From positions 1 through 64,000 of the forward strand of contig NZ_CP014699.1 of the NCBI RefSeq assembly GCF_001642085.1: DNA of 64,000 nucleotides, written 5' to 3'. Source of the DNA: Streptococcus pantholopis. Its GTDB lineage: Bacteria; Bacillota; Bacilli; Lactobacillales; Streptococcaceae. The position numbers were made by a program, and so were the translations under genes. Below, piece after piece: positions 16,388 to 37,370 of the stretch; within the stretch, counting starts at the first letter, position 1, and every line of letters starts with the position of its first letter. The notes below the pieces were generated by a model. The model made no database searches, was not told where the DNA came from, and was given only the letters and a program-made list of their open reading frames with translations.

Positions 16388-16416
16388 TCGACAGACTACT
16401 TGAATTTTAATATAAT
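16388..16416 (+). promoter_or_regulatory. Promoter of the first esxA
   Basis: TCGACA (16388-16393), a 17-nt spacer and TATAAT (16411-16416), 35 nt before the ATG. It differs in sequence from the promoters of copies 2 and 3, because the duplicated block begins just downstream at the AAAAGGAGATTT ribosome site. Confidence 0.65.
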
Positions 16417-16451
16417 AGCGGTGTATTAAATAGAAAAAGGAGATTTATACT

Positions 16452-16745
16452 ATGGCAGAAGTATCATTATCACCAGAAGAGCTTTCCAGCCAAGCGAGTG
16501 TTTATTCGACAGCTGTTGAGCAGATAGAGACAGCTATTCAGGCGGTAGAAAGAACGAACGGCGAGATGCAGTCTCACTGGAACGGGCAAGCCTATCAAGC
16601 CTACTTAGAGCAATATAATCAGCTTCGTTCAGATGTGACGAAGTTTGAAGAGTTGTTAACATCAGTGAACCAACAGCTGACCTCTTATGCATCAGTTGTT
16701 TCCGAGCGTGATACAAGCGATGCGGGCCAATTCACCTTTCAGTAA
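16452..16745 (+). CDS. esxA: WXG100 protein EsxA, copy 1
   Basis: A 97-residue helical hairpin protein with the WxG turn as WNG (SHWNGQAY, about residues 42-49). EsxA is a secreted small substrate and structural partner of the T7SSb. The ribosome site is AAAAGGAG. The same protein, residue for residue, is encoded at 25618 and 35783. It directly follows esaA rather than opening the operon, and has its own promoter, so it can be made in excess of the apparatus. Confidence 0.95.
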
Positions 16746-16772
16746 ATAGAGTGACTATAAGAACTTTTTAGA

Positions 16773-16812
16773 AAAGGGCTGGGACGGGAGTCCTGGTCCT
16801 TTCCTTTATGTT
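16773..16812 (+). terminator. Hairpin after esxA copy 1 (terminator or attenuator)
   Basis: A 13-bp stem with three G-U pairs (AAAGGGCTGGGAC, GGGA loop, GTCCTGGTCCTTT) is followed by a T-poor tail. It would let most transcripts stop after esxA and some run on. It is preserved in all three copies. Confidence 0.6.
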
Positions 16813-16854
16813 TAAATAAAGCTTGTAGTGAAAGAGAAGAGGGGGGTATAAGAG

Positions 16855-17280
16855 ATGTCAGATGCAGCTATGGCGTCCTATTATGATAATTTAGCGAGTC
16901 AAGAGTCGGCTAATTATGCATCAGCGATAGCGGAGAAGGGGGTAGTAGACGGTCAGATAGCGCGATTGCAGGAAGCAGAGACGAGTTTGACCAGTCAGAT
17001 AACTGAGTTTCAGACCAGTATAATAGATGCTTTTTCGACGATAGAGGCGAGTGACAGCAGTCAGTTTCAGGGTGATCGACAGACGAAGTATGAGGAGAAG
17101 TATAGTTCAGCGCAGACAGCAGCGACGACGAACAAGAGCAGTCATGATACGAATTTAAGCAGTATAGGGACGAAGATATCGGAGTTGGAGACGACGTCAG
17201 CGAGTTTACAGTCGGCAGCGAACACGGCATACAACAATATGACGAGTTATACGAATCAGGCAAACAGTTATAGGGGGTAG
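16855..17280 (+). CDS. Small helical LXG partner protein 1, copy 1 (DUF5082/DUF3958-like)
   Basis: A 141-residue, almost wholly alpha-helical, cysteine-free protein with Gln/Ser/Thr/Ala-rich heptads and no membrane segment. Genes of this kind stand directly before LXG toxins, and their products bind the LXG domain to guide export (LXG-associated alpha-helical, Lap, proteins). Family assignment is by size, composition and position, not by a motif. The start is ATG 16855 after a GAGGGGGG site. The coding strand uses an odd AG/AC-rich vocabulary (many ACG, GCG and AGC codons), unlike the apparatus genes, and this also creates a long antisense frame. Identical in sequence to the copies at 26021 and 36186. 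Confidence 0.75.
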   Translation: MSDAAMASYYDNLASQESANYASAIAEKGVVDGQIARLQEAETSLTSQITEFQTSIIDAFSTIEASDSSQFQGDRQTKYEEKYSSAQTAATTNKSSHDTNLSSIGTKISELETTSASLQSAANTAYNNMTSYTNQANSYRG

Positions 17281-17289
17281 GAAAGGAAT

Positions 17290-17574
17290 ATGGCAAAGAC
17301 AGGGACCAATTACGAGACGTGGTCAGGCTTGACAGGGACAGTGTCGACGAGTGTTTCGGGTTTATCGGATTTATCGGCCTTGACTTTTTCGACAACCACC
17401 ATGACTCCGTTTACGGATTTCAGTCAGTTAATAGAGGATTTCAACAGTGTATTAACGGACTTGAGGACGTATACGGAGAGTGATGTGACGCATATGAATC
17501 AGGCGGCAGAGAACAAGGTGACGGATGACAGCAATCAGGCGAGTGCAGGGAGTGGAAGCAGCAGTAGGTTTTAA
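17290..17574 (+). CDS. Small helical LXG partner protein 2, copy 1 (TIGR04197/DUF5344-like)
   Basis: A 94-residue protein starting nine bases after the previous gene behind GGAAAGG. It has a Ser/Thr-rich N-terminal half, a helical middle, and a polar tail with Asp after the helix, as in small T7SS substrates and LXG partner proteins. The order esxA, partner 1, partner 2, LXG toxin is the usual one for LXG export modules. The exact family is uncertain. The copy at 26456 is identical and that at 36621 is truncated. Confidence 0.65.
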   Translation: MAKTGTNYETWSGLTGTVSTSVSGLSDLSALTFSTTTMTPFTDFSQLIEDFNSVLTDLRTYTESDVTHMNQAAENKVTDDSNQASAGSGSSSRF

Positions 17575-17651
17575 TCACTGAAGGGCACTGCAGGAGGTAA
17601 ATTTTGTAGTTGCTTTGAGATAGCCTATCTTATGCTTGATTAGCAATTATC

Positions 17652-18368
17652 GAGATTTAAGATTAGAAGGGGCTTGATATGAAAATCGATATGACAGAGG
17701 TCAATGAGAATAAGACAACTTTAACGACCTCTATTGATAATTTGAACAGTCAATTGGAAACTGCTAAGACTTCCTTTACGAATCTAGTCAATACCGACAG
17801 TCTTCAAGGGGAGGTCAAGACAGCCATAGACGGTAAGATTAATAACTATCAGATTCCGCTTCTGACCAACTTTTCCAATAGTTTATCGACTTTATCGGCC
17901 CAGTATGATAAGGCGATAGAGGCGTTTCAAACGACGGTTGAGGAGACCTCAGCTACGGCGATTATCGATACGGATTATCTGCAGGGATTAGAGGATGGCT
18001 ATAGTACGATAGAGAGCAGTATAGCGACGATAGACAGTGAGACGTCCAAGATTTACAGTTCGATATCTGATATCATCAGTTTGAGCAATCCCAGCAGTTC
18101 AGATATTACGACACCGTTGAGTGAAGCCAAGAAGGTATTGACGGATACCAAGAGCAACATGGAGACTTTTAACGGCTGGACACAGGGGACAGAATTCAGT
18201 GAACTGTTGGCCAGTCAGGGGACCATATTGGCTTCTTTATCTGAATTAATAGGGGTATCTTATACTGATGCGGATGCTTCGGCATTTTATTCGGATGCCA
18301 GTTTTGCGGACGGTGTTCAGACCATTGCTCAAGGGATTACTTCAGCTGCTACTCCTGTTGCTTTGCTC
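17652..18368 (+). repeat. LXG N-terminal block shared with LXG-2
   Basis: Matches 20894-21610 (offset 3242). The match starts 27 bases before the ATG and ends at LXG codon 230, well past the point where LXG-3 departs (codon 177). Confidence 0.9.
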
Positions 18369-19103
18369 AAAGGTGTAGCAAAATCGCTTAATACTATTTC
18401 TCAAAATTCGGGTTCTTGGTGGGAAAGCTTTTCAGATATTTGGAAAAATTATAGTTTACAGACAGCTAAATCCAGTTCGAAAAACTCACCAATAGCATTA
18501 AATATAAATCTTTCATCTTTTTGGGATGACCTTTTTGGTTCTCAAGACAGTGTTTCTGTATCACAAAATTATAGAAAAGAAGGAAATTGGCTTTTTACAA
18601 CCTACCACAAACAGACAGAAAAAAGCGTTACAACTGACCCTGGAGTTGTTCAAACAAAAACAGATAATGGTCGTTTTTCGGGAGTAGCTATCAATGCAGG
18701 TCCTTTGTCGTTTGATGTGAGTCTTGAAGATTGGCATTTTAATTTGAATACTGAAATCAACTTGTTTGGCTATACCGGTGGTGTTAAAGCAGATTTAGGT
18801 TTCTCTAATGAAACGGGTATTGAGTTGGATGTAGCAGGAGGAGGAGGTCGTAAGACCGATACATCTTCAAGCACTGATTATTTTGGCTTGAAGGTCAGTA
18901 CAGATTTAAATGATGGTATATTGGGTGGTTACCATCAGCACACTACCTCTACAACTAGTGGAAATACAACAACGAGTACACAAAATGAATCTGGTTTCCA
19001 AGTGGGGAACTGGGGAGAAGTAGCCGCTGTAGCAGTTGTAGCAGGAATAATCGTTGCTCCAGAAGTAACAGTTCCTGTTTTAGGGACAGCCTTAGCCTTT
19101 TAG
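17679..19103 (+). CDS. LXG polymorphic toxin 1, unrecognised C-terminal domain
   Basis: A 474-residue T7SSb effector. Residues 1-200 form the helical LXG targeting domain. Residues 1-230 match LXG-2, and 1-177 match LXG-3. From about 231 it is unique: a Trp-rich linker, then a beta-rich Gly/Asp/Asn/Thr region (roughly 270-440), and a hydrophobic C-terminal end (VAAVAVVAGIIVAPEV and beyond) able to enter a membrane. No known nuclease, NADase or lipase motif was found. Target unknown; membrane attack is a guess from the tail. It is followed by a 2-TM protein, a DUF4176 protein and a small anchored protein. The last codons reappear as an orphan fragment at 31031. Confidence 0.85.
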   Translation: MKIDMTEVNENKTTLTTSIDNLNSQLETAKTSFTNLVNTDSLQGEVKTAIDGKINNYQIPLLTNFSNSLSTLSAQYDKAIEAFQTTVEETSATAIIDTDYLQGLEDGYSTIESSIATIDSETSKIYSSISDIISLSNPSSSDITTPLSEAKKVLTDTKSNMETFNGWTQGTEFSELLASQGTILASLSELIGVSYTDADASAFYSDASFADGVQTIAQGITSAATPVALLKGVAKSLNTISQNSGSWWESFSDIWKNYSLQTAKSSSKNSPIALNINLSSFWDDLFGSQDSVSVSQNYRKEGNWLFTTYHKQTEKSVTTDPGVVQTKTDNGRFSGVAINAGPLSFDVSLEDWHFNLNTEINLFGYTGGVKADLGFSNETGIELDVAGGGGRKTDTSSSTDYFGLKVSTDLNDGILGGYHQHTTSTTSGNTTTSTQNESGFQVGNWGEVAAVAVVAGIIVAPEVTVPVLGTALAF

Positions 19104-19127: not shown

Positions 19128-19880
19128 ATGGACTACCTTAGAATAAGACAGCGATATACCCTTTTAGTGAGATTGGCGATTTTACTACCTTCACTACCAT
19201 TGCTTTATTATTTGTTTGCTAAGGACAACTATCTTATTAAAATATTGTGTATCATAATATATATGGCCGTTTTGGCTGTTTGCGTTTATATAATTAATCG
19301 TTGGTATAGCCAAACCGTCACTTATGTTTTGTATTCCCAAGTCGATTTAGCTGCCTTTAGGGAATTTATAGAAATAAACGGTGAGTCTAAAAATGGCAAA
19401 AATCACTTACAATCTAAGCTAGCTGCCATCACATATCACTATCTTATTGGGGACTTTGTATCTGTAATCCAAAGGGTGAGTGAATTAGACGGGAATGCTA
19501 AACTGAGTCAGTCGCAAGCAAGGGTGTTGGCTCTCTATCGAATTAAATCACATATATTATTAGGGGATTATTCAAATAAGCAAGAGTTTAGAGAAGCTGT
19601 CTCCAAGACACTGTCAGAATATCATAATGAAAATAGAGAAATAGTGGAAAACTGTGAAGCTGTTTACGATATTGTGTCAAGTCAGCAACCAAATGACTAC
19701 TTTGAAGAGTTAGAGAGCGATTTAAAGATATATCAGCTAGAGTTTATGTACTTTAAAGCTTGTAATGCTGTTTTGAAAGGCAATACAGCAGAGGCAGAGA
19801 AGCTGTTTACGGCATTGTCTCAAGAAGATGATAATCTTTACATTGTAAAGGAATCAAAAAAGTATTTAGAGGAGAACTAG
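19128..19880 (+). CDS. Putative immunity protein: two membrane helices plus TPR-like cytoplasmic domain
   Basis: A 250-residue protein with two hydrophobic helices near the N-terminus (about residues 15-31 and 36-55), then a cytoplasmic helical region with repeat-like spacing (YHYLIGDFVSVIQR, LYRIKSHILLGDY, FKACNAVLKGNTAEAEKLF) resembling tetratricopeptide repeats. It starts 24 bases after LXG-1, the usual immunity position, and is membrane-bound, which would suit a toxin acting at the inner face of the membrane. No database family is recognised. A copy truncated after about 180 residues lies at 31169, again after the same toxin end. It ends one base before the DUF4176 gene. Confidence 0.6.
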   Translation: MDYLRIRQRYTLLVRLAILLPSLPLLYYLFAKDNYLIKILCIIIYMAVLAVCVYIINRWYSQTVTYVLYSQVDLAAFREFIEINGESKNGKNHLQSKLAAITYHYLIGDFVSVIQRVSELDGNAKLSQSQARVLALYRIKSHILLGDYSNKQEFREAVSKTLSEYHNENREIVENCEAVYDIVSSQQPNDYFEELESDLKIYQLEFMYFKACNAVLKGNTAEAEKLFTALSQEDDNLYIVKESKKYLEEN

Positions 19881-19881: not shown

Positions 19882-20214
19882 ATGGCAGCAGCAAGTCGTC
19901 AGCAGCTACCTGTAGGGTCTGTTGTTAATATATCAGATGAGGCAGCAAATGTTGTCATTATCGGTCAGTTTCCAGTTGTAGAAAATGATGGTGATAAGGG
20001 CTATTATGATTTTGTAGGAGTAACTCTTCCTATTGGCTATGATGCAAAGACCTTATTGTTTTTCAATAAAGAAGATATCAACAATGTTATCTTTTTGGGG
20101 TATATTGATGCAGCTTTCCAGAGTTTTCTAAAAGAAGCCGACTCATTTGAAAAAGAAACGAGATTGCAAAAGCTTAAAGCAAGTCAAGCTAGGAGAGAGC
20201 AAGATGACCTTTAG
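19882..20214 (+). CDS. DUF4176 protein, LXG-1 cassette
   Basis: A 110-residue cytoplasmic protein with the DUF4176 pattern: LPVGSVVNI near the start, a YYDFVGVTLPIGYD core, then FFNKEDINNVIFLGYID. Such proteins are regular companions of LXG toxins in Firmicutes T7SS loci; their job is unknown. Each complete cassette here has one (23645, 30601), and a longer relative is at 36720. The 3' end overlaps the next gene by 11 bases. Confidence 0.75.
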   Translation: MAAASRQQLPVGSVVNISDEAANVVIIGQFPVVENDGDKGYYDFVGVTLPIGYDAKTLLFFNKEDINNVIFLGYIDAAFQSFLKEADSFEKETRLQKLKASQARREQDDL

Positions 20215-20893: not shown

Positions 20894-20920
20894 GAGATTT
20901 AAGATTAGAAGGGGCTTGAT

Positions 20921-22699
20921 ATGAAAATCGATATGACAGAGGTCAATGACAATAAGACGACTTTAACGACCTCTATTGATAATTTGAACAGTCAATTGGA
21001 AACTGCTAAGACTTCCTTTACGAATCTAGTTAATACCGACAGTCTTCAAGGGGAGGTCAAGACAGCCATAGACGGTAAGATTAATAACTATCAGATTCCG
21101 CTTCTGACCAACTTTTCCAATAGTTTATCGACTTTATCGGCCCAGTATGATAAGGCGATAGAGGCGTTTCAAACGACGGTTGAGGAGACCTCAGCTACGG
21201 CGATTATCGATACGGATTATCTGCAGGGATTAGAGGATGGCTATAGTACGATAGAGAGCAGTATAGCGACGATAGACAGTGAGACGTCCAAGATTTACAG
21301 TTCGATATCTGATATCATCAGTTTGAGCAATCCCAGCAGTTCAGATATTACGACACCGTTGAGTGAAGCCAAGAAGGTATTGACGGATACCAAGAGCAAC
21401 ATGGAGACTTTTAACGGCTGGACACAGGGGACAGAATTCAGTGAACTGTTGGCCAGTCAGGGGACCATATTGGCTTCTTTATCTGAATTAATAGGGGTAT
21501 CTTATACTGATGCGGATGCTTCGGCATTTTATTCGGATGCCAGTTTTGCGGACGGTGTCAAGACCATTGCTCAAGGGATTACTTCAGCTGCTACTCCTGT
21601 TGCTTTGCTTAATAGTGTTTCTAAAGCGCTTCGTTCAGCTGAGCAGGAGGAAGATTCTTGGTGGCAAGGCTTTGCAGAAATCTGGAAGGAGTATACATCG
21701 GCTATAAGTGGTAGTTCTTTGTACAAAGGTGTTACAGGCAGTGTTTCCTTGTTACAAACTTATCTAAAAATTTTTATTAAGGGCTCTAAGACCCGTGATG
21801 CAGCTGATCTAGGTGGCAAAGCATTTCAGAAACTCAGTCTTTCATGGTCAGCTATTAGCAAATCAGGCAAAGATTTAAGGTCTATTGTTAAAAATCTTAA
21901 GAATTCTAAAGCTTGGGGAGCATTGGCTAAAATCGGTAAGACTAAGGGTTGGAAATCGCTATCTAAAACTTATAAATGGGGGAAAAAATACTTTGATGCA
22001 GTTAAAAATCCCTTGAAATCCTTTGTGAATAATTTGAGTGACGGTGCTGCTAAGATTGGGAAGTGGGGATCAAAGCTCAAATCAAAAACTTTAAGCTTAG
22101 GCTTAGGTCTAGTAGGAAAGATTGCTAATTCTAAGGCTTGGAAAAAGGTTACTAATTCTAAGGCTTGGAATAAAGTTGCTAATTCTAAGGCTTGGAAAAA
22201 TGTTAGTGGTGTACCCAGCAAGCTCAAAGGCCCTTTGAAGTCCGGTATAAAGACTTTAGGTAAAGTTGCTAGGGTTGGTGGCTGGGCAATGACCATTGCT
22301 GAAGCTGGGATTTCTGGTTATCAAGCCTATAATGATAAGGACAGTAGGGCTTATCACAGTGTTGGGAAGTCAGCCATTCATGCGGGAGTTGAAACTGTTA
22401 AAAATGCTGGTCCAATCGAATATACATTAGCTGGTGCTGAGATTGGTTCGGTGATTCCTGGAGTAGGGACAGCTGTTGGTGCAGGTGTTGGCTTTGTCGT
22501 TGGTTCTGCTAATGCAATGTGGGGAGTAGTAGACGGTTGGTTAGGCACTGATTCAAAAGAGAGGGCTTACTCTTGGGTTGAAAATAAATTAGATGATGCC
22601 TATGATTGGACAGCTGATAAGGTGCAGAAGGCAGGAAAAGCCGTCGGAGATACTATGTCAAGGGGCTGGAACAATGTCAAATCAGCTTTCGGTTTTTAG
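20921..22699 (+). CDS. LXG polymorphic toxin 2, probable pore-forming (glycine-zipper) type
   Basis: A 592-residue effector. Residues 1-230 match LXG-1 with two substitutions (N10D, Q213K region). The variable part has a basic helical region with repeated NSKAW units (see 22123-22204). It ends in a Gly/Ala-rich segment with GxxxG spacing (SVIPGVGTAVGAGVGFVVGS, residues about 508-530) and an amphipathic tail. Glycine-zipper LXG toxins such as streptococcal TelE permeabilise membranes, so a pore-forming role is likely but inferred. The cassette lacks its own esxA and partner genes and may borrow those of its neighbours. The six-TM gene that follows is the obvious immunity candidate. Confidence 0.8.
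   Translation: MKIDMTEVNDNKTTLTTSIDNLNSQLETAKTSFTNLVNTDSLQGEVKTAIDGKINNYQIPLLTNFSNSLSTLSAQYDKAIEAFQTTVEETSATAIIDTDYLQGLEDGYSTIESSIATIDSETSKIYSSISDIISLSNPSSSDITTPLSEAKKVLTDTKSNMETFNGWTQGTEFSELLASQGTILASLSELIGVSYTDADASAFYSDASFADGVKTIAQGITSAATPVALLNSVSKALRSAEQEEDSWWQGFAEIWKEYTSAISGSSLYKGVTGSVSLLQTYLKIFIKGSKTRDAADLGGKAFQKLSLSWSAISKSGKDLRSIVKNLKNSKAWGALAKIGKTKGWKSLSKTYKWGKKYFDAVKNPLKSFVNNLSDGAAKIGKWGSKLKSKTLSLGLGLVGKIANSKAWKKVTNSKAWNKVANSKAWKNVSGVPSKLKGPLKSGIKTLGKVARVGGWAMTIAEAGISGYQAYNDKDSRAYHSVGKSAIHAGVETVKNAGPIEYTLAGAEIGSVIPGVGTAVGAGVGFVVGSANAMWGVVDGWLGTDSKERAYSWVENKLDDAYDWTADKVQKAGKAVGDTMSRGWNNVKSAFGF
22123..22204 (+). repeat. In-frame 27-base tandem repeat in LXG-2
   Basis: Three consecutive units of GCTAATTCTAAGGCTTGG plus nine bases encode NSKAW repeats; a related unit lies near 21900. 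The copy number could vary by slippage and change the length of the toxin neck without breaking the frame. Confidence 0.85.
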
Positions 22700-22714: not shown

Positions 22715-23587
22715 ATGGGGAAATCTATATTTGGAGCTGATTTTGAAGAAAGTAAGCGGATTATTAACTTTAAAAAGCTATCTAATACTCTGAAAAACGA
22801 CACCTCAATGAACCGTTCATTACCCCGCCGCTTGTTTGCTTTTTTTATAGCGGGAACGCTCTTATTCTCAGCCATGCTGGGCCTGTTATTTGCCATGCCT
22901 TTTGGTTTAAGATCGGCTGCTGAGACTGGAAGTGTTCGTCACTTATCTTCAGAAGCGGTTATCATGATAGGAAATATCGGTCAGGCAATGTTAATTCCAA
23001 ATATTATTGTATTTGTGATAATGCTTCTATCGGCCTGTTTTTCTATCCTGATTCCAAAACGTGATATTTCCAGACAAATTTTTTCTGGTTTTCCTTTTTT
23101 AGGAAGCATGATTTATACTGCAACGGTACCCTTCATTTATATCACTGGCATGCTGGCTTTCAATCGATTTGGCATATCAGGTTTGCTTCTGCAAGTATTG
23201 GTTGGTTTTCTTTTAATAGCTTTAATCTTCTATCAAGGCTATTTACGAACCAAAGCACAACTATATGGTGAAGCTAATAATAGGGACAGTTTTTATACAA
23301 AATTAATCTTGGGAATAACGATAGGGACTAGCTTTATTCTTTTAATTTTGAGTCAAACGGTATTTAAGGGGCTGACCAGTGATTTTAATGCTAAATGGTA
23401 CAGCTATCTCCTAGGTTTAGGCGTAACTGTTACAATGGTTGTTTTCGCCTATAGCTTTCGAAAAATGAGTGATTTCTGCCTTTTTCAAGGTTTCTATATG
23501 ATGAAATACTCTAAGCAGTATAAAGACTACCTGCAAATTGCGGATGAAAATTGGTACCGCGGTGGGCGTAAGAAGGAGCAAAAATAA
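22715..23587 (+). CDS. Six-TM membrane protein, putative immunity for LXG-2
   Basis: A 290-residue integral membrane protein with about six hydrophobic helices (first FAFFIAGTLLFSAMLGLLFAM, last LLGLGVTVTMVVFAYSF) and cytoplasmic basic ends. It starts 15 bases after LXG-2 behind GAGAGGAA. Immunity proteins of pore-forming LXG toxins are membrane proteins, so position and topology fit. No family name is recognised. Nothing else in the window resembles it. Confidence 0.55.
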   Translation: MGKSIFGADFEESKRIINFKKLSNTLKNDTSMNRSLPRRLFAFFIAGTLLFSAMLGLLFAMPFGLRSAAETGSVRHLSSEAVIMIGNIGQAMLIPNIIVFVIMLLSACFSILIPKRDISRQIFSGFPFLGSMIYTATVPFIYITGMLAFNRFGISGLLLQVLVGFLLIALIFYQGYLRTKAQLYGEANNRDSFYTKLILGITIGTSFILLILSQTVFKGLTSDFNAKWYSYLLGLGVTVTMVVFAYSFRKMSDFCLFQGFYMMKYSKQYKDYLQIADENWYRGGRKKEQK

Positions 23588-23644: not shown

Positions 23645-23941
23645 ATGGCAAAAGAGTTACTACCGCTGGGGAGTTTGGTTTATTTGAAAGAAGGCACGGT
23701 TAAATTGATGATTATTGGACGCGGGATTGAACTGAACGAAGAGGCTGGAAATGTCTATACAGACTATGCTGGCGTAGTTTATCCTGAGGGTTTTAATCCT
23801 GAAAATGGCTACTTTTTCAATGATGAAGATGTTGATCGAGTAATTTTTCGAGGTTTTGAGGATGAAGAAGAGAATCGTTTTATGGAGGTTTACGAGGAGT
23901 GGGAAAAGACAATAACCATTCCTAAAAAACAGTCAGATTAG
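23645..23941 (+). CDS. DUF4176 protein, LXG-2 cassette
   Basis: A 98-residue protein with the same plan as its relatives at 19882 and 30601: LPLGSLVYLKEG at the start, YTDYAGVVYPEGF in the middle, FFNDEDVDRVIFRGFEDEEE near the end. Cytoplasmic, no membrane segment. Good AGAGGAA ribosome site. A terminator follows, which separates it from the next three genes. Confidence 0.78.
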   Translation: MAKELLPLGSLVYLKEGTVKLMIIGRGIELNEEAGNVYTDYAGVVYPEGFNPENGYFFNDEDVDRVIFRGFEDEEENRFMEVYEEWEKTITIPKKQSD

Positions 23942-25576: not shown

Positions 25577-25617
25577 GACTGTGTCATTACATTAAAAGCG
25601 AAAAGGAGATTTATACT

Positions 25618-28883: not shown

Positions 28884-28997
28884 TAACTTATCATTTGTTG
28901 TTGGATATCGAAAATTGCCTGCCAGATAATGGATCTTTAATAAATAAAAAAACAAATAGCAATGCTGAAAACTGCTGGATAATTGATAGGGGAAAGC

Positions 28998-29663: not shown

Positions 29664-29763
29664 TGTGAGCACATCAAAGAAGTGCTCTTTTCTAAAAGAA
29701 TTATTCTTAGGCAGCATCGAGAAAGGATAAAGAAAAGCTGTTTTTATGATTTGATTTTTAATA

Positions 29764-30447
29764 ATGGGAGGATTTATGTATTATGGTGGCTTAGAGCTTG
29801 TGACGATTAATTCCCGTTACTTGGTCTTTAGTGCGGCTGGCAATTACTATCTTTTGGATAGAAAACCTAAGTATTTTGTCGGTTATTTTTTCCTGCCCAC
29901 AGCTTGGCTTGTGAAACAAAAATTATATCTTCTTACAGAAAGTGATTATCTTAAACTTGTTGAGAAAGTTCAACAGAACAGAGCGAGCGGTATAGTGGTA
30001 CCGGCTTCATTCAGCGGCGCTGGAGCTGTCTTGCTCAGTTTGTTTATCCGAAGAAGCGGTTTGATGGAACAATTGGACTTAGGCTTCTCTTTGTTTGTGA
30101 ATAGTATAATTGTCTGCCTAATGTTTTTGATAGCTTTTGCATTGGTACAATGGGTTTATTTAACGAGATATCGAAAGATTGCTTCGGATTTATCATTAGA
30201 GCAAAAGGGACTTGTCTACGCAAAATTAATCCCTGAGAGGCTTAATAAAACAGTCATGAAAGCTGTTTTTGTACATATTGTGCTGTGGATACTGACTCTT
30301 GCTGTGACTGCGGCAGCTATTTTATCAGGCAACTTGTTTTTTCTCTTTTCCACTCTTTTGCTTTTCTTTCTCTCCTTACTTTTTAGCGGGATTGGGCAGA
30401 CGTCTCTGCTGAGCTATAAACTAAAAATTTTACGAAAGAATCGATGA
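29764..30447 (+). CDS. DUF443/TsaI-like membrane immunity protein 3
   Basis: A 227-residue protein with the same plan as the two before it: a YLVFSAAGNYYLLDRKPKYFVGYFF start, a TESDYLKLVE segment, an RRSGLMEQL link, and four to five membrane helices with a basic end. The tandem arrangement is typical of this family and probably gives protection against related toxins of other strains. GGGAGG ribosome site. Confidence 0.65.
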   Translation: MGGFMYYGGLELVTINSRYLVFSAAGNYYLLDRKPKYFVGYFFLPTAWLVKQKLYLLTESDYLKLVEKVQQNRASGIVVPASFSGAGAVLLSLFIRRSGLMEQLDLGFSLFVNSIIVCLMFLIAFALVQWVYLTRYRKIASDLSLEQKGLVYAKLIPERLNKTVMKAVFVHIVLWILTLAVTAAAILSGNLFFLFSTLLLFFLSLLFSGIGQTSLLSYKLKILRKNR

Positions 30448-30600: not shown

Positions 30601-30921
30601 ATGTTACCTATTGGCAGTGTCGTTTACCTGAAAGAAGGTAACCAAAAATTGATGATTTTAAATAGAGCGCCTCTTCTGACCGTGAATGGTATGCAAAAGT
30701 ATGTTGATTATTCAGCTTGTGAATTCCCTAAAGGACTTGTTCCAGAAGAAGTTTATTATTTCAATGAAGAAGATATTGATAAAGTTATATACATGGGCCT
30801 TCAGGACGAAGATGAAAAACGATTTGAAGAGTTATATAATGTGTGGCGCAAAGAAAATGAAACTAGAATCCCACAAGCTAAAATAGTTAAAAATAGCAGC
30901 GGCAATATCGAACTTCAATAA
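30601..30921 (+). CDS. DUF4176 protein, LXG-3 cassette
   Basis: A 106-residue protein of the same type as at 19882 and 23645: MLPIGSVVYLKEGNQKLMI, YVDYSACEFPKGL, FNEEDIDKVIYMGLQDEDE. Cytoplasmic. It is closer to the LXG-2 cassette protein than to the LXG-1 one. It ends the LXG-3 cassette. Confidence 0.78.
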   Translation: MLPIGSVVYLKEGNQKLMILNRAPLLTVNGMQKYVDYSACEFPKGLVPEEVYYFNEEDIDKVIYMGLQDEDEKRFEELYNVWRKENETRIPQAKIVKNSSGNIELQ

Positions 30922-31030: not shown

Positions 31031-31144
31031 TTAGGTTTCCAGGTAGGAAACTGGGGAGAAGTAGCCGCTGTAGCAGTTGTAGCAGGAATAATTTTTGCTC
31101 CAGAAGTAACAGTTCCTGTTTTAGGGACAGCCTTAGCCTTTTAG
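31031..31144 (+). pseudogene. Orphan 3' tip of an LXG-1-type toxin
   Basis: Matches the last 36 codons of LXG-1 (GFQVGNWGEVAAVAVVAGII and on, with V to F once) and its stop codon. No start codon or LXG domain stands in front. The match continues through the spacer into the gene at 31169. It is a leftover or donor fragment from cassette recombination. Confidence 0.88.
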
Positions 31145-31168
31145 CGGTCAAGAAAGAAGTTATATGAT

Positions 31169-31756
31169 ATGGACTACCTTAGAATAAGACAGCGATATAC
31201 CCTTTTAGTGAGATTGGCGATTTTATTACCTTCACTACCATTGCTTTATTATTTGTTTGCTAAGGACAACTATCTTATTAAAATATTGTGTATCATAATA
31301 TATATGGCCGTTTTGGCTGTTTGCGTTTATATAATTAATCGTTGGTATAGCCAAACCGTCACTTATGTTTTGTATTCCCAAGTCGATTTAGCTGCCTTTA
31401 GGGAATTTATAGAAATAAACGGTGAGTCTAAAAATGGCAAAAATCACTTACAATCTAAGCTAGCTGCCATCACATATCACTATCTTATTGGGGACTTTGT
31501 ATCTGTAATCCAAAGGGTGAGTGAATTAGACGGGAATGCTAAACTGAGTCAGTCGCAAGCAAGGGTGTTGGCTCTCTATCGAATTAAATCACATATATTA
31601 TTAGGGGATTATTCAAATAAGCAAGAGTTTAGAGAAGCTGTCTCCAAGACACTGTCAGAATATCATAATGAAAATAGAGAAATAGTGGAAAACTGTGAAG
31701 CTGTTTACGATATTGTGGAGATGGAAGCTCGACTTCCTAAAATTGCGAATCCATAA
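31169..31756 (+). pseudogene. Truncated copy of the LXG-1 partner/immunity gene
   Basis: The first roughly 180 codons are the same as the gene at 19128, including both membrane helices. At 31718 the match stops and the frame ends after 15 unrelated codons (EMEARLPKIANP at the end). The junction lies 60 bases before the restriction gene, so the incoming restriction-modification DNA probably cut it. The remaining protein could still reach the membrane, so leftover immunity cannot be ruled out. Confidence 0.8.
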
Positions 31757-31777: not shown

Positions 31778-33520
31778 ATGAAGTCAAGAACTTATGGCTG
31801 GGTACAAAATCCATCAAGTTTTATTAGTTTAAAAAAAGTTGTCCAAATTTTTAATAATAAATCTAATCACTACCAATTACTGAAAGAAAAGTTGGTAGAT
31901 ACTATCTATTTTGAAGACATTAGAACAATTTTCTTAAATAAACTACAAGAAGGTGTAGAGGAATTTTCTTATTTGGAGCTTGTTGGAACCTCTAAAGATA
32001 GGAACGGAAGATTACCTAAAAAACGGTCTGATGCTGTGGCAGATGCTCTTATTCAGATTAGTATTACCCCTCAGCAGACAAAAAACACAGGCAAAACTTG
32101 GACAGATAACTGGACGGCAGACGGCTTTTTACGCTGGGCAGTTAGCCTTAATTTTGTGTCAGTCGATAGAGAAACAGACTGTTTCTCTATCACTGCTAAA
32201 GGGCGAGCTTTTTCCACAACTCTTGATGGTTCAGATGAGGAAATTGCTATTCTACAACAAGCTTTATTGGCTTATCCACCGGCTACCCAAATTCTTTCTC
32301 TATTAAAGGAGCACGGAGGCTATTGCACCAAATACTATCTGGGTGAAAAGCTTGGATTCCGTGGAGAAAAAGGATTTACTTCTTACAACGAAGACATCAT
32401 GTTCGATTGGTTAGGTGCTGCAACGCAATCAGAAAGGAAATCGATAAAATCAGACATCGAAGGAACAAGTGATAAGTATGCCAGAGGGATTTGCAATTGG
32501 TTGAAGAATGTTGGTTTAGTGGAAACTAAAACAGTTAAAAGATTGTTAGATAATGGCATGGTAGATGGATTTCAAGGTTATAAAATCAATGCTCGAGGTA
32601 TTCATTTACTAAATCAATCGCAAGGTAGTTCAAAAAATACAAGACTTGAAAAATTTATTATGTGGGAATTTTTTGCTACCCATGGGGAAAACCGGGATTA
32701 TATTCGAACTCGTCGAGCATATATCGTGAAATTTCTTCAGGAAACTCAATCTTTATCCATATTGTTAGCCAAATTAAGGTCCAAAGGTTTTAATGATGAA
32801 AAAGAAATTATTTTATCAGATATTGAAGGGTTAATTAATTTTGGACTAAGAATAGGGTATTCAGAGAATAGGATAATTTTAAAAGATCGTGTAAATGATT
32901 TTTCTATTCCAAATTTAGAAATTACAAAAGAACTGAAAGATGAGCAATCCGAAAAACGGAAAGCATATTTTTTGAAAGAGACGAATTTACCGTTGAAATA
33001 CATCGAATTACTAGATATTGCTTACGATGGTAAAAGAAATCGAGATTTTGAAATTGTTACGATGGAACTATTTCGTAATGTTTATCGTTTACAGTCAAAA
33101 TTATTAGGCGGAGTTCGAAAGCCAGATGGATTATTATATAAGCACCGTTTTGGAATTATTGTAGATACTAAGGCTTACGGAGAGGGCTATTCGAAATCGA
33201 TTAGCCAGGCTGATGAAATGATACGCTATATTGAAGACAATAAACGCCGTGATGAAAACCGTAATTCTACAAAATGGTGGGAGCACTTTCCAGATTGTAT
33301 TCCTAAACAGAGTTTCTATTTTATGTGGGTATCTAGCAAATTTGTTGGTAAATTTCAAGAGCAGCTGGATTATACAGCAAATGAAACGAAAACGAACGGT
33401 GCTGCTTTGAATGTAGAACAACTTCTTTGGGGTGCGGATCTAGTAGCAAAAGGTAAATTAGATATTTCTCAATTACCAAGTTATTTTCAAAATAAGGAGA
33501 TTGAATTTGTAAAAGCATAG
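31778..33520 (+). CDS. AlwI-family type II restriction endonuclease
   Basis: A 580-residue protein with the conserved N-terminal signature of AlwI-type enzymes (LPKKRSDAVADALIQI, WTADGFLRWAVSLNF). A C-terminal nuclease core is suggested by the FEIVTMELFRNVY helix, GIIVDTKAYGEGY (Asp and Lys of a PD-(D/E)xK site) and RRDENRNSTKWWEHFP. AlwI cuts outside the asymmetric site GGATC; this enzyme may have the same or a related target. The matching methyltransferase faces it tail to tail, 10 bases away. The pair interrupts the effector array and is a mobile defence unit by its position. Confidence 0.85.
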   Translation: MKSRTYGWVQNPSSFISLKKVVQIFNNKSNHYQLLKEKLVDTIYFEDIRTIFLNKLQEGVEEFSYLELVGTSKDRNGRLPKKRSDAVADALIQISITPQQTKNTGKTWTDNWTADGFLRWAVSLNFVSVDRETDCFSITAKGRAFSTTLDGSDEEIAILQQALLAYPPATQILSLLKEHGGYCTKYYLGEKLGFRGEKGFTSYNEDIMFDWLGAATQSERKSIKSDIEGTSDKYARGICNWLKNVGLVETKTVKRLLDNGMVDGFQGYKINARGIHLLNQSQGSSKNTRLEKFIMWEFFATHGENRDYIRTRRAYIVKFLQETQSLSILLAKLRSKGFNDEKEIILSDIEGLINFGLRIGYSENRIILKDRVNDFSIPNLEITKELKDEQSEKRKAYFLKETNLPLKYIELLDIAYDGKRNRDFEIVTMELFRNVYRLQSKLLGGVRKPDGLLYKHRFGIIVDTKAYGEGYSKSISQADEMIRYIEDNKRRDENRNSTKWWEHFPDCIPKQSFYFMWVSSKFVGKFQEQLDYTANETKTNGAALNVEQLLWGADLVAKGKLDISQLPSYFQNKEIEFVKA

Positions 33521-33530: not shown

Positions 33531-35492
33531 TTATGCTTTTACTGTTTTAGGATCATAGTTTGTGATGAGCACTTCAACACTGTCTTCTTTTATAGTATTG
33601 TAAGAAGAATTTTTATAATGGTAGTTTAGTATGGTTAGATGAAGCTGTTCCTCTTTAATAAAATCCTCTAGCATAGTGTTATGCTTGCCTTTATGCTTCA
33701 AAACATTGCTTAGTGCAAATTTGATACCTCTGTGATTGAGTTCTCTCATTACTTGGTACATTTCGGCTTCCTGCTTCTCCCCCCAATTGGTGAACCCTCT
33801 ATTACCATCGTTGTAACTACCTGTGGTTATAAGATAAGGTGGATCGAGATAAACAAAGTCATTTTTTGACAATTTTGAAATATCGAAATCTATCAGCAAT
33901 TTATCTGAAAAAGTAGCTTTTAAGCTTTGTAGGCGAGTTATGAAATTGAGCAAGTTTTTTTTCATATTTTCACTGAAATGACTTCTGTTCCGCCCAAAAG
34001 GGTTATTAAACTCCATAAGATTATTAAACCGAAATTGATAATTATAGCTATAAGAGGATAAAATATATAGATCTAATGGGTTTGGATTTTCATTATACTG
34101 TTTCCGGAAAGCCAAAAAACCTGCTTCATTGGTTTTGCTCAGTTGATATTCCTTGATTCTTTTTTCAATTTTTTCAACCAACTCAATTGGGTCGTGCGAC
34201 TGAAAATAGCGAAACATTTCGTTTATTCGATAATTCATATCGTTGAAAATATATCTATGAGCGGGAACGTTAATACCGACATTTGCTCCGCCGCTAAATA
34301 AGTCTACGAATGTATCAATCTCTTTTGGAAAAAGTGGAATAATTTGTTTAAGTAGACGATATTTTCCTCCAATATAGTTGAGGGGACTTTTTATATATTC
34401 TCTTTGATTAATAACAGTCGGTTTATGCTTAGGTTTATTTAAGAACTTATTAGGGGTTGGCTTTCGTTGAATATAAAAAAGAAGTTCATATAGTTCTTTT
34501 TGTTTTGATTTTTGCTTCGATTGGTATTTCCGATAAGGTATTCGCTTAACATCTACCTGATTGTCATAGGCATACTTCAAAAGCAGCGAGTAGAGCTCGC
34601 TTTCCGAGATAATGCCCTCATTGTTGTAACTCAAGATTATATGAGTGGAATCTATATTAGCTATCAAATTTTCCATAGCATTAGCTGCTCTAGTTTTCGT
34701 AGAATAATCACTTTTTAGGCTTTGCCAATCGAATATTTTTGTCACTCCTTTTAGCTCGGGTTTATGATGTAGAGCTACATTTTCTAGCAAGTGATAATTT
34801 GAGGCATACTGACGAGAGTTATAGGGAGTGTCAATATAGACAATATCTGCTTTAATCTGCTTAACGAGTTCGTTAGCATCTTGGTGGAAAGCTTTATTTT
34901 TTCTATAATTATTAAATATTATTGTTTCTTCCGTTAATGTTAATGGATTCAATGCTCGTTTATCCCAATGCTTCAAAAAAGCTCCGTAAGTGCCTGTAAT
35001 ATTGCTTACGTAAGGGATAGCTTCGATTAAACAATTTAGTAAATAGAAGTATTCATACTCATTCAACAATAATTTCTCTGCTTTCCATTTTTCAATCTGT
35101 TCCCTAATACTATCAATTTTACGAGCATTTTCTTGTGTTAGATACATAGAATTTCCAGCTGGAGAGTAGTTGTTTGTGTAATATCCAGACATTCCCTCTA
35201 GTTGTTGTAAATACTCTAAGGGGTTATTAATCCCAATTTTTTTCAATGCATTAAAATGCAGATAGGAGTTATTTTCGATAACGGTCTTAGCCTTAATATA
35301 ATTAAAGTAGAGTGTGTCGTTAGAATAAATAGTAAAATAAGGTTTGAAGAAATTCCCAACCACATTTGTACCTGCGAATAAATCTAAAAAGATTTCCTCT
35401 CCACCAAAGAGATGCTTATCAAGCATCTCTTTTATTTCTGATAGTAATAATTTTTTAGAACCTATATATCTCATTTCGACATCCTTATTCAT
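33531..35492 (-). CDS. Double-domain adenine-specific DNA methyltransferase (D12 class, AlwI/FokI type)
   Basis: A 653-residue fusion of two Dam-like methyltransferases. Domain 1 has the SAM-binding motif DLFAGTNVVGNF and the catalytic motif as DTPY (VYIDTPYNSRQY). Domain 2 has DLFSGGANVGINV and DPPY (FVYLDPPYL). Two domains are needed when the recognition site is asymmetric, because each strand is methylated separately, as in M.FokI. This fits the AlwI-like nuclease next door. The start is ATG at 35492 on the minus strand. It is transcribed toward the nuclease gene, from its own promoter in the 35500-35640 gap. Confidence 0.87.
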   Translation of the reverse strand: MNKDVEMRYIGSKKLLLSEIKEMLDKHLFGGEEIFLDLFAGTNVVGNFFKPYFTIYSNDTLYFNYIKAKTVIENNSYLHFNALKKIGINNPLEYLQQLEGMSGYYTNNYSPAGNSMYLTQENARKIDSIREQIEKWKAEKLLLNEYEYFYLLNCLIEAIPYVSNITGTYGAFLKHWDKRALNPLTLTEETIIFNNYRKNKAFHQDANELVKQIKADIVYIDTPYNSRQYASNYHLLENVALHHKPELKGVTKIFDWQSLKSDYSTKTRAANAMENLIANIDSTHIILSYNNEGIISESELYSLLLKYAYDNQVDVKRIPYRKYQSKQKSKQKELYELLFYIQRKPTPNKFLNKPKHKPTVINQREYIKSPLNYIGGKYRLLKQIIPLFPKEIDTFVDLFSGGANVGINVPAHRYIFNDMNYRINEMFRYFQSHDPIELVEKIEKRIKEYQLSKTNEAGFLAFRKQYNENPNPLDLYILSSYSYNYQFRFNNLMEFNNPFGRNRSHFSENMKKNLLNFITRLQSLKATFSDKLLIDFDISKLSKNDFVYLDPPYLITTGSYNDGNRGFTNWGEKQEAEMYQVMRELNHRGIKFALSNVLKHKGKHNTMLEDFIKEEQLHLTILNYHYKNSSYNTIKEDSVEVLITNYDPKTVKA

Positions 35493-35712
35493 CCTTTTAG
35501 TCTTTTCATTATACCATACTAAAAATTAACTTCCAATACTTTATTCGGAAACTTGGAAGTTTCCAGATAAAGCATGATTTTTAGGTTATAGATGTTTGGG
35601 TTGTATTTATTGTTTTAGACTACTGAATGAGGTATGGCATAAAGTATATGAACTAAGTCAACCTAATTTATTTTTATCAAGAAGTTTGTCAGTTTAGACT
35701 GCGAGTAAGGGG

Positions 35713-35741
35713 TGGACAAAAGGCCAAAGATTTGATATACT
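35713..35741 (+). promoter_or_regulatory. Promoter of the third esxA
   Basis: TGGACA (35713-35718), a 17-nt spacer and TATACT (35736-35741), identical to the copy 2 promoter. Confidence 0.75.
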
Positions 35742-35782
35742 GACTGTGTCATTACATTAAAAGCGAAAAGGAGATTTATACT

Positions 35783-36076
35783 ATGGCAGAAGTATCATTA
35801 TCACCAGAAGAGCTTTCCAGCCAAGCGAGTGTTTATTCGACAGCTGTTGAGCAGATAGAGACAGCTATTCAGGCGGTAGAAAGAACGAACGGCGAGATGC
35901 AGTCTCACTGGAACGGGCAAGCCTATCAAGCCTACTTAGAGCAATATAATCAGCTTCGTTCAGATGTGACGAAGTTTGAAGAGTTGTTAACATCAGTGAA
36001 CCAACAGCTGACCTCTTATGCATCAGTTGTTTCCGAGCGTGATACAAGCGATGCGGGCCAATTCACCTTTCAGTAA
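35783..36076 (+). CDS. esxA: WXG100 protein EsxA, copy 3
   Basis: 97 residues, identical to copies 1 and 2. It has a complete promoter, ribosome site and hairpin, and can be expressed although no toxin follows in this module. Confidence 0.95.
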
Positions 36077-36103
36077 ATAGAGTGACTATAAGAACTTTTT
36101 AGA

Positions 36104-36143
36104 AAAGGGCTGGGACGGGAGTCCTGGTCCTTTCCTTTATGTT
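36104..36143 (+). terminator. Hairpin after esxA copy 3
   Basis: Same stem and loop as behind the other two esxA copies. Confidence 0.6.
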
Positions 36144-36185
36144 TAAATAAAGGTTGTAGTGAAAGAGAAGAGGGGGGTATAAGAG

Positions 36186-36611
36186 ATGTCAGATGCAGCT
36201 ATGGCGTCCTATTATGATAATTTAGCGAGTCAAGAGTCGGCTAATTATGCATCAGCGATAGCGGAGAAGGGGGTAGTAGACGGTCAGATAGCGCGATTGC
36301 AGGAAGCAGAGACGAGTTTGACCAGTCAGATAACTGAGTTTCAGACCAGTATAATAGATGCTTTTTCGACGATAGAGGCGAGTGACAGCAGTCAGTTTCA
36401 GGGTGATCGACAGACGAAGTATGAGGAGAAGTATAGTTCAGCGCAGACAGCAGCGACGACGAACAAGAGCAGTCATGATACGAATTTAAGCAGTATAGGG
36501 ACGAAGATATCGGAGTTGGAGACGACGTCAGCGAGTTTACAGTCGGCAGCGAACACGGCATACAACAATATGACGAGTTATACGAATCAGGCAAACAGTT
36601 ATAGGGGGTAG
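36186..36611 (+). CDS. Small helical LXG partner protein 1, copy 3
   Basis: 141 residues, the same protein as at 16855 and 26021. Intact, although its usual companions (partner 2 and a toxin) are lost from this module. Confidence 0.72.
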   Translation: MSDAAMASYYDNLASQESANYASAIAEKGVVDGQIARLQEAETSLTSQITEFQTSIIDAFSTIEASDSSQFQGDRQTKYEEKYSSAQTAATTNKSSHDTNLSSIGTKISELETTSASLQSAANTAYNNMTSYTNQANSYRG

Positions 36612-36620
36612 GAAAGGAAT

Positions 36621-36701
36621 ATGGCAAAGACAGGGACGGTGTCGAGAGTACGATATCGTTCGCCAATTTTGTTTTATTTTTTAACGGACTTTATATTTTA
36701 A
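36621..36701 (+). pseudogene. Truncated LXG partner protein 2, copy 3
   Basis: Starts MAKTGT like the intact copies, but at GACAGGGAC the 33 bases up to the next GACAGGGAC are missing. After seven more matching bases (GTGTCGA) it departs altogether. The frame ends after 26 codons. The LXG toxin gene that should follow is absent. Confidence 0.85.
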
Positions 36702-36719
36702 CAAAAGGAGTATGAGAAT

Positions 36720-37370
36720 ATGACAGCAGTGGATAGTCTTTATCAGGCAGCGCTCGAACGACTGCCTATTTCAGAGCTTGCACGGGAGGTGTTAAACCAG
36801 TTTGGTTATAGTGTGACAAGCCAGCGGGAAATTTTTCGGGACTTGCAGCTAGCTTTTTTTACGCAACAGAATGAGTATACCTATCAAGGAATTATTGGTG
36901 TTTCAACTACACTTCATTTTGACTGGCCGTCTGAAACGGTAACATTTAATCGGTTAGATGCTGAAGTAGTACTGGCACTTTCAGATTTTAAATGCTGGCT
37001 AGCAGAGACTGATTTACTTTTGGCGCCAGTTCTTCCTTTAGGAACAGTGGTTGAGTTAGATAGTCGCTTCTTTCCTGAAGCGCTTGTCAAATCATTTGAA
37101 AAAGAAGGGATTCCTTTTAGAGCATCAATTTCGGGACGCCGGTTTTTGTTACACCCTAATGCTGCTGATGAACACAGTTATGTAGATTATTTGGCAACGA
37201 TTTATCCCTATGGCATTAGATTGGATACGGAACCACTTTTAGTCCCTAATTATATGATTGAACGCATTGTCCAAGAAGGCTATCAAGACGAACAAGACGC
37301 TGTTTATGTGGAAGCGCAGTATCGCAGAGATTACTTTCATTCAGGTATCTTATCAGGTATTTATAAATAG
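36720..37370 (+). CDS. Long DUF4176-type protein
   Basis: A 216-residue cytoplasmic protein behind AAAAGGAG. The C-terminal half shows the DUF4176 order: LPLGTVVELD (about residue 107), then YVDYLATIYPYGI and MIERIVQEGYQDEQD. The N-terminal hundred residues (LYQAALERLPISELAREVL onward) are extra and not recognised. Long forms of DUF4176 occur in other T7SS loci. It is the only cargo behind the third esxA module and may be a general T7SS accessory protein rather than part of one toxin cassette. Confidence 0.65.
   Translation: MTAVDSLYQAALERLPISELAREVLNQFGYSVTSQREIFRDLQLAFFTQQNEYTYQGIIGVSTTLHFDWPSETVTFNRLDAEVVLALSDFKCWLAETDLLLAPVLPLGTVVELDSRFFPEALVKSFEKEGIPFRASISGRRFLLHPNAADEHSYVDYLATIYPYGIRLDTEPLLVPNYMIERIVQEGYQDEQDAVYVEAQYRRDYFHSGILSGIYK

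What the first reader, a model, noticed from the sequence alone, without database searches (positions are those of the whole stretch)
16388..37370. T7SSb effector array built from near-identical export modules with swapped toxin ends
The block esxA, partner 1, partner 2, start of LXG occurs at 16436 and 25602 almost base for base, and without the toxin at 35642. A fourth LXG start stands alone at 20894. Behind the constant part come three unrelated toxin C-termini, each with its own immunity candidates and DUF4176 gene. Three residue-identical EsxA proteins argue for very recent duplication or ongoing gene conversion. The layout is that of a toxin-switching locus in which homologous recombination between constant modules can exchange, delete or silence toxins, comparable to Rhs and MafB arrays.
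Basis: partly seen in the sequence, partly recalled or inferred. Interest (0 to 1): 0.88.

Follow-up and report, generated by a model that had tools for sequence, protein, structure and literature searches.

The report
Shared-handle toxin array in Streptococcus
A streptococcal chromosome carries five exported-toxin genes with an almost identical front part but mostly different toxin ends, at three separate places; the pattern suggests that recombination keeps the front part uniform while toxin ends are swapped, a known style of bacterial weapon evolution in an unusually clear and extended form.

Summary
Three esxA modules are near-identical in DNA (99.5-99.8%), and three LXG genes share codons 1-176 but carry unrelated toxin ends. 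The module is the TelA type: partner 1 is a LapA4 homologue, partner 2 a LapA3 homologue (structure 8gmh). Module 3 lacks the toxin, and its LapA3 is broken.

Two islands 0.25 and 0.46 Mb into the same chromosome carry LXG genes with the same front (98-99% protein) and no TelA-type Lap genes, plus three headless toxins. Site patterns among the five full copies are mosaic, pointing to exchange between loci. In two pairs of close relatives the same slot holds different toxins, with the break at nearly the same codon, about 177-180. Of 15 LXG types with two or more genes, 12 have exactly one gene with LapA3 nearby.

Swapping by recombination is therefore supported. A live, regulated switch is not shown; all five full genes have a start codon. 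Related ideas are in print for Enterococcus, Bacillus and Staphylococcus. I rate it a new variant of a known kind.

The parts
7271..7732 (+). EssA-like machinery gene
   Evidence: Open reading frame in T7SSb gene order; no Pfam match; similar by eye to a gene in the same order in relatives. EsaB lies at about 7677-7955 (tblastn 27% identity)
8187..9086 (+). EssB (YukC), C-terminal part; its N-terminal part lies in another frame just upstream, the break being at a G-run (read by eye)
   Evidence: Pfam PF10140 positions 80-356; frames and sequence; real break or sequencing indel not decided
9079..13509 (+). EssC ATPase, 1476 aa, open frame
   Evidence: FtsK_SpoIIIE; 61% identical to EssC of G190 and G194 over the full length
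13525..16347 (+). EsaA-like, 940 aa
   Evidence: Homologues beside EssC in G190 and G194
16388..16416 (+). sigma-70-like promoter before esxA copy 1
   Evidence: TCGACA-17-TATAAT, 11 of 12 (a consensus match only: 86 such sites in the region, 58 expected)
16425..18209 (+). constant module 1 (esxA, lapA4, lapA3, LXG codons 1-177)
   Evidence: 99.6% to 25591-27375
16452..16745 (+). EsxA copy 1 (WXG100)
   Evidence: PF06013 3e-15
16773..16802 (+). terminator-like hairpin after esxA (repeated at 25939 and 36104)
16855..17280 (+). LapA4 homologue, copy 1
   Evidence: Profile hit to 8gmh_C LapA4, E 4.6e-61
17290..17574 (+). LapA3 homologue, copy 1
   Evidence: Profile hit to 8gmh_D LapA3, E 1.4e-41
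17679..19103 (+). LXG toxin 1; toxin end of a family with no Pfam match
   Evidence: PF04740; LXG part matches 8gmh_B, E 1.2e-72; toxin end has homologues in 14 other of 335 genomes
19128..19880 (+). immunity candidate for toxin 1
   Evidence: Position; no Pfam match, no NCBIfam match over its cut-off
19882..20214 (+). DUF4176 (Ltc chaperone family)
   Evidence: PF13780 1e-18
20894..21631 (+). second LXG start with ribosome-binding site, no partner genes directly upstream
   Evidence: 98.4% to 17652-18389
20921..22699 (+). LXG toxin 2 with glycine-zipper motif
   Evidence: PF04740; GxxxGxxxG at residues 516 and 520
22715..23587 (+). membrane immunity candidate for toxin 2
   Evidence: Position; 34-47% identical to immunity candidates of islands B and C
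23645..23941 (+). DUF4176
   Evidence: PF13780 9e-25
25591..27375 (+). constant module 2
25618..25911 (+). EsxA copy 2
   Evidence: 100% identical to copy 1
26021..26446 (+). LapA4 copy 2
26456..26740 (+). LapA3 copy 2
26845..28230 (+). LXG toxin 3
   Evidence: PF04740; followed by three DUF443 (TsaI family) genes
28245..30447 (+). three DUF443 immunity genes, the second apparently with a split frame
   Evidence: PF04276; frames
30601..30921 (+). DUF4176
   Evidence: PF13780 6e-26
31034..31717 (+). fragment: end of toxin 1 plus shortened immunity gene
   Evidence: 99% to 18993-19676
31778..33520 (+). FokI-family restriction endonuclease
   Evidence: Four FokI Pfam domains
33531..35492 (-). D12-class adenine methyltransferase, two matched stretches (probably a fused pair)
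   Evidence: PF02086 1e-72, 2 stretches
35642..36637 (+). module 3: EsxA and LapA4 intact, LapA3 broken, no LXG
36720..37370 (+). long DUF4176 protein; in relatives a similar gene precedes LXG 1
   Evidence: PF13780; gene order of G190, G194 and G021 (similarity by eye)

Best explanation
This is a TelA-type T7SSb effector array in which the export handle is the constant part. The LXG domain (codons 1-176) is recognised by one LapA3/LapA4 pair and exported with the help of EsxA. The cassette of toxin end, immunity gene and DUF4176 chaperone is the exchangeable part. Homologous recombination between LXG copies, within the array and with two satellite islands elsewhere on the chromosome, keeps the handle uniform. 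It joins new cassettes at the point where homology ends (codon about 177 between linker classes, about 214-240 within a class). A displaced toxin can be left headless downstream. Satellite LXG genes lack Lap genes and would borrow the array's pair in trans. Shown: near-identity, mosaic sites, nearly the same break point in relatives, headless copies, no TelA-type Lap genes at the satellites. Inferred: RecA-type recombination, trans use of the Lap pair, antibacterial action, fitness value.
For: Five full LXG fronts in one genome are 98-100% identical, against at most 68% to any other genome in the set. The 13 variable DNA sites found in the first 531 bases (headless fragments included) are third codon positions in 12 cases, while relatives are only about 60-64% alike in DNA, so protein selection alone cannot explain the identity. 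Sites 30, 39, 111 group T7_2 with B and sites 318, 321 group B with C: six four-gamete failures, simulated chance without recombination 0.001-0.006. C is a patchwork: promoter like B (1 difference in 77), start like T7_1 (3 in 531), linker like T7_3 (3 in 207). Relatives: G020/G021 are 97.5% identical up to +541 of LXG 1 and G190/G194 95.0% up to +532, then the toxins differ; window copies 1 and 3 break at +531. Island C: 90 bases of the constant part repeated on both sides of the class II toxin cassette, 2 differences. pyrH and frr, about 6.4 kb apart here, lie -2 to 44 bases apart in 18 of 19 relatives read and 289 in one, so C is an insertion. TelA-type Lap genes only in the array. Across 21 genomes: 15 LXG types with two or more genes hold 42 genes, of which 16 have LapA3 within 3 kb upstream; of 16 single-gene types 15 have one.
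Against: No strain of the same species and no reads were available, so ongoing exchange is not shown. In some species groups (G040, G041, G180; also G005, G113, G116, G117) the front is as similar between species as within a genome, so homogenisation is not always genome-specific, and recent spread could mimic it. G190 carries the same toxin on both LXG genes (99%), a plain duplication. The mosaic rests on 5 informative sites. G114 has two LXG genes of one type and no LapA3 hit near them; G210 has no LapA3 hit. The LapA3 search used a TelA-type profile, so distant Lap genes can be missed. Partner 2 also matches NCBIfam TIGR04197, a different Lap family by name, though under its cut-off (23.2 against 26 bits). 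The essB frame is split, so the machinery may be impaired or the assembly has indels.
Confidence: 0.74

Rival explanations
1. Recent duplication only: whole modules and islands were copied very recently and have not exchanged sequence since; toxin differences came in with the copies.
For: Very high identity, all array copies in one orientation, and tandem toxin copies in islands B and C at about 93-99% DNA identity. In G190 the second LXG gene is a plain copy of the first.
Against: Conflicting site groupings within 531 bases and the patchwork of gene C need exchange or repeated identical mutations. Toxin replacement at nearly one codon in three lineages is not explained by copying alone.
Confidence: 0.15
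2. A programmed switch locus (like pilE/pilS or MafB) with one expressed copy and silent stores.
For: Three headless toxins in islands B and C, two of which keep 264 and 90 bases of the constant front, the third starting in the linker; direct repeats that would allow deletion or exchange.
Against: All five full LXG genes have a start codon, and B has a TTGACA-17-TATACT promoter-like sequence just upstream (read by eye). No recombinase was seen in the array apart from the IS200-type transposase at its border. The headless toxins are of one toxin class only.
Confidence: 0.08
3. Assembly artefact: repeats multiplied or wrongly joined.
For: Several neighbouring genes have split frames (essB, a penicillin-binding protein gene 3831-6196, one DUF443 gene), which suggests indel errors.
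Against: Copies differ by base substitutions and have partly distinct flanks; island C lies between two genes that are otherwise neighbours; relatives show the same design.
Confidence: 0.03

Closest known systems
Streptococcus intermedius TelA-LapA3-LapA4 (PDB 8gmh)
   Same: LXG domain, LapA3 and LapA4 are clear homologues; as described for telA/telB (passage of PMC10765036), relatives of the window keep a further gene between the Lap pair and the toxin
   Different: There TelA and TelB are described with LapA and LapB proteins of their own (passages of PMC13355648); here one Lap type would serve five toxins at three places
Orphan LXG modules of Enterococcus faecalis OG1RF (PMC7790226, passages)
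   Same: Toxin fragments with homology to a full LXG gene that could recombine
   Different: Here two of three fragments keep 264 and 90 bases of the constant front, and the layout of displacement is visible in island C
B. subtilis and Listeria LXG loci with one front and different toxins (PMC8321402, PMC10327511, passages)
   Same: Nearly the same LXG domain at one genomic position with different toxin ends (B. subtilis); LXG genes at many chromosomal places
   Different: Here the same front is repeated within one genome, with mosaic sites, and satellites lack Lap genes; Listeria hotspots are said to carry one or two helical partner genes
S. aureus TspA/TsaI and EsaG recombination (PMC9484751, passages)
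   Same: DUF443 immunity tandem genes, a toxin fragment in the immunity cluster, recombination between paralogues
   Different: There recombination was shown for esaG and tipC immunity genes and little for tsaI; here it is in the LXG targeting domain
Rhs, CDI and MafB polymorphic toxins with orphan ends (recalled; Rhs and CDI work is cited in PMC7790226)
   Same: Constant delivery part, swapped ends, displaced orphan cassettes
   Different: Unrelated proteins and secretion route

Membership tests
T7SSb locus | EssC, EssB, EsaA and EsxA together | tested here: met
   EssB frame is split
TelA-type LXG module | LXG domain homologous to TelA LXG | tested here: met
   8gmh_B, E 1.2e-72, codons 1-176
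TelA-type LXG module | LapA3 and LapA4 partner genes upstream | tested here: met
   for LXG genes 1 and 3 of the window; not directly upstream of LXG gene 2, absent at the satellites
TelA-type LXG module | Lap-dependent export of the toxin | not testable with these tools
   needs a secretion assay
Polymorphic toxin array with orphan ends (Rhs/CDI-like in working) | constant front, unrelated toxin ends with own immunity | tested here: met
   immunity function itself inferred from position and family
Polymorphic toxin array with orphan ends (Rhs/CDI-like in working) | headless toxin cassettes with some constant homology | tested here: met
   two of three in islands B and C keep constant front, one only linker; in the window only an end fragment at 31034
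Rhs or MafB family proper | Rhs repeats or MafB domain | tested here: not met
   Pfam at E 0.01 shows only LXG in the three window toxins; works like, is not
Programmed silent-cassette switch | one expression site, silent stores | tested here: inconclusive
   five full genes each with a start codon speak against it; expression itself not tested
TspA/TsaI | DUF443 immunity genes behind an LXG toxin | tested here: met
   three DUF443 genes behind toxin 3
TspA/TsaI | toxin end homologous to TspA | not tested
   no TspA sequence was compared

The most novel reading that the evidence does not exclude
A hub-and-satellite rule for LXG toxins: the unit of specificity is the LXG-domain type, not the toxin. 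Each type has one Lap pair at a hub. Any number of toxins, including genes hundreds of kilobases away without Lap genes, plug into it in trans by carrying the same domain. Recombination between loci keeps that domain uniform and lets toxin cassettes move between slots.
Probability: 0.5. Interest if true: 0.7.

Novelty: new variant of a known kind. Interest (0 to 1): 0.56.

Why it matters
In Streptococcus intermedius LXG toxins have been described with a cognate Lap pair each. If one pair serves a whole set of toxins at distant loci, counts of toxins per strain and predictions of which toxins can be exported change, and a newly arrived toxin end needs only to recombine into a resident front to be exported. 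The prediction is simple to test by removing the Lap genes and looking at the satellite toxins. The shared break codon also gives a practical rule for finding swapped toxins in genomes.

Tried and rejected
Species name: not obtained. The one genome-contig scan returned 3 loci, of which the best is Streptococcus sp. DD13 at 65%; the window's own record may be left out of that collection. The genus Streptococcus is inferred from that record, whose contig length equals that of G210:C1, a genome of the window's genus.

Single-sequence AlphaFold model of the end of toxin 1: mean pLDDT 31, useless, so no fold search was made. Homologues of toxin 1 came from the genome search and are outside the stated rule for structure jobs, so they were not sent.

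A promoter-only switch: not favoured because all five full LXG genes have their own start and upstream region.

DNA identities of row G020_b are an artefact (a stop in that fragment shifted the codon mapping); only its protein identity is used. For the genus-wide table I used 21 of the 31 genomes with a match (own genome included), and not all LXG places of those 21: in G041, G040, G180, G190, G020 and G021 further places, partly of other types, were not fetched. Headless or partial fronts were left out. One full front was dropped by me before the count: G044 at 2146844 (L066, a 251-residue frame with a stretched match); it has no LapA3 hit near it, so counting it would add one gene without a Lap neighbour.
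Full report
Names used here: toxins 1, 2, 3 are the LXG genes at 17679, 20921 and 26845 (T7_1 to T7_3 in the scripts); islands B and C are at chromosome positions 252 kb and 458 kb.

What is there. The window begins a single-contig chromosome of 2,241,302 bases of the genus Streptococcus (genus). A T7SSb machinery (EssA-like, EsaB, EssB, EssC, EsaA) runs to 16347 and is followed by the effector array. Differences were listed base by base: 8 of 1785 between modules 1 and 2, 2 of 996 between modules 2 and 3, 12 of 738 between LXG 1 and LXG 2. Module 3 is a remnant: LapA3 stops being homologous 17 bases in, and no LXG follows.

What the parts are. Profiles of partner 1 and partner 2 (window protein plus four relatives) hit the solved TelA complex 8gmh: LapA4 at E 4.6e-61 and LapA3 at E 1.4e-41; the window LXG domain hits the LXG chain of the same entry at 1.2e-72. 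Curated families are weaker: Pfam YwqH-like for partner 1 (30.9 bits, cut-off 33.7) and NCBIfam TIGR04197 for partner 2 (23.2, cut-off 26), both under cut-off; Pfam gives nothing convincing for partner 2. DUF4176 proteins are described as Ltc chaperones that hold some LXG toxins in an export-ready state (passages of PMC13355648). Behind toxin 3 stand three DUF443 genes, the family of the TspA immunity protein TsaI (passages of PMC9484751 and PMC9600955). Toxin 2 and the full toxins of islands B and C contain GxxxGxxxG motifs, toxins 1 and 3 do not; glycine zippers are needed for toxicity in TelE (passages of PMC10434224). Toxin 1 has no Pfam match at its end; that end has homologues in 14 other of 335 genomes of the family, one of them (L074) behind an N-terminus that looks different by eye. 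Membrane attack by toxins 2 and 3 and by the island toxins is inference; the action of toxin 1 is unknown.

Beyond the window. The constant LXG front recurs in full at 252506 and 458806 of the same chromosome, and parts of the gene at 255031, 256986 and 461189. Island B holds one full LXG toxin and two headless copies of the same toxin class with immunity candidates; the second headless frame begins with a toxin tail joined to LXG at about codon 90. Island C, between pyrH and frr, holds a full LXG gene with a class II toxin, an immunity candidate and DUF4176, then a headless class I toxin with immunity candidates and DUF4176. Of the three headless toxins, two keep constant front (264 and 90 bases), one starts in the linker. 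In 19 relatives whose locus I read (of 20 with a match), pyrH and frr are -2 to 44 bases apart in 18 and 289 in one, so C is inserted; the site of B was not resolved this way. Neither island has a TelA-type Lap gene: LapA4 is found at three places and LapA3 at two, all in the array. The second T7SSb of this genome has small genes of its own beside its candidate effector, which these profiles do not match.

Evidence for exchange. Among the five full fronts, sites 30, 39 and 111 join T7_2 with B, and sites 318 and 321 join B with C, giving six four-gamete failures. Without recombination, 13 mutations on random five-leaf trees gave six or more failures in 0.12%, 0.36% and 0.63% of 40,000 runs each for 531, 177 and 100 free sites. 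Gene C reads as a patchwork of B-like promoter, T7_1-like start, B-like middle and T7_3-like linker. The headless toxin of C is closer to B (1 difference in 90) than to C's own full gene (2 in 90) over the shared constant part, as expected if a B-like gene was displaced by a class II cassette. This is suggestive, not conclusive, on so few bases.

Relatives. G190, G194 and G021 have EsxA-LapA4-LapA3-long DUF4176-LXG 1-immunity-DUF4176-LXG 2 (G021 with one more immunity-DUF4176 pair); G020 has the same order with some split frames (DUF4176 and immunity assigned by eye). G020 and G021 are 97.5% identical from 2.2 kb upstream to +541 of LXG 1, G190 and G194 95.0% to +532, and the toxins then differ. 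In the window, toxin 1 against toxin 3 breaks at +531. The likely reason for the common point is that two linker classes diverged long ago, so homologous exchange runs up to, and stops at, their border; a second border at about +640 to +700 separates toxins within class I. In G190 both LXG genes carry the same toxin (99%), a plain duplication.

Genus-wide test. Of 284 genus genomes (own included), 31 match the LXG front. I fetched loci from 21 of the 31, and not every place in those. They hold 58 counted full fronts in 31 types (85% clustering within a genome); one more full front in G044 was dropped. Single-gene types: 15 of 16 have a LapA3 gene within 3 kb upstream. Types with two or more genes: 15, with 42 genes, of which 16 have one; 12 of the 15 have exactly one, G000 and G005 two, G114 none (with LapA3 hits). 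Satellites lie 10 kb or more from the hub, or on other contigs, in G000, G040, G041, G044, G134 and G180. In G134 three genes with 99% identical fronts, one of them 1.07 Mb from the hub, face a single LapA3 hit in the whole genome. Against a strict species-by-species homogenisation: in G040/G041/G180 and in G005/G113/G116/G117 fronts are as similar between species as within.

What is known. LXG toxins as polymorphic toxins, Lap pairs, orphan LXG fragments that could recombine, one front with different toxins at one place, many chromosomal LXG sites and recombination among immunity paralogues are all in print (passages of PMC5555719, PMC9600955, PMC7790226, PMC8321402, PMC10327511, PMC9484751, PMC10765036). 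Truncated essC copies near effectors are reported in S. gallolyticus (passages of PMC13253547) and S. suis (abstract of PMC12558993). I did not find a statement that one Lap pair serves several LXG toxins in trans; this rests on seven answered text searches of an open-licence library and on passages, not whole papers.

Verdict. Recombinational exchange of toxin ends is the best reading (0.74). A programmed switch is unlikely on present evidence. The most interesting part is the one-Lap-pair-per-LXG-type pattern with satellites, which is directly testable.

Noticed in passing
31778-35492: A FokI-family restriction endonuclease with a D12 methyltransferase sits inside the effector array between two array fragments; relatives of the endonuclease are in 3 other of 284 genus genomes, in one of them in pieces. 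Loss of the segment by recombination between modules 2 and 3 would remove the methyltransferase too, which could select against that deletion (speculation).
   Followed up: partly
7940-9086: essB is split between two frames at a run of G; cannot tell a real break or phase-variable tract from a sequencing indel.
   Followed up: partly
3831-6196: A transglycosylase/transpeptidase (penicillin-binding protein) gene also seems to have its frame split; short fragments in 1-3800 suggest indel errors or decay at this end.
   Followed up: no
G000 C1 1806675-1822393 (L037, L030): A second, different T7SSb with its own EsxA-like protein and a partial essC copy 97.5% identical to the main essC over the 1019 bases compared, around a candidate effector gene.
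   Followed up: partly
G000 C1 934640-937340 (L036): Another LXG gene of a different type with a partial copy downstream (411 bases, 97.8% identical).
   Followed up: no
38639-38887, 41655-44400, 49548-52551: A dispersed intergenic repeat family of about 100-260 bases occurs many times in the window; copies also lie just after island C (464620-464940) and about 2 kb before island B (250069-250439).
   Followed up: no
L031, L032, L034, L035: In relatives the second LXG gene of the array is homologous to the first only from about codon 5 on; three of four have a TTG there behind an AAGG-like sequence, and three of four a TATAAT box upstream (by eye).
   Followed up: partly
37594-38118: IS200-like transposase gene at the right border of the array.
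   Followed up: no
G000 C1 256963 (L028): Headless toxin 2 of island B starts with a toxin tail fused to LXG at about codon 90 at a shared Thr-Ser-Ala stretch, as if formed by a short-homology deletion.
   Followed up: no
61460-61557: 23S-methyl RNA motif (RF01065), 87 bits.
   Followed up: no
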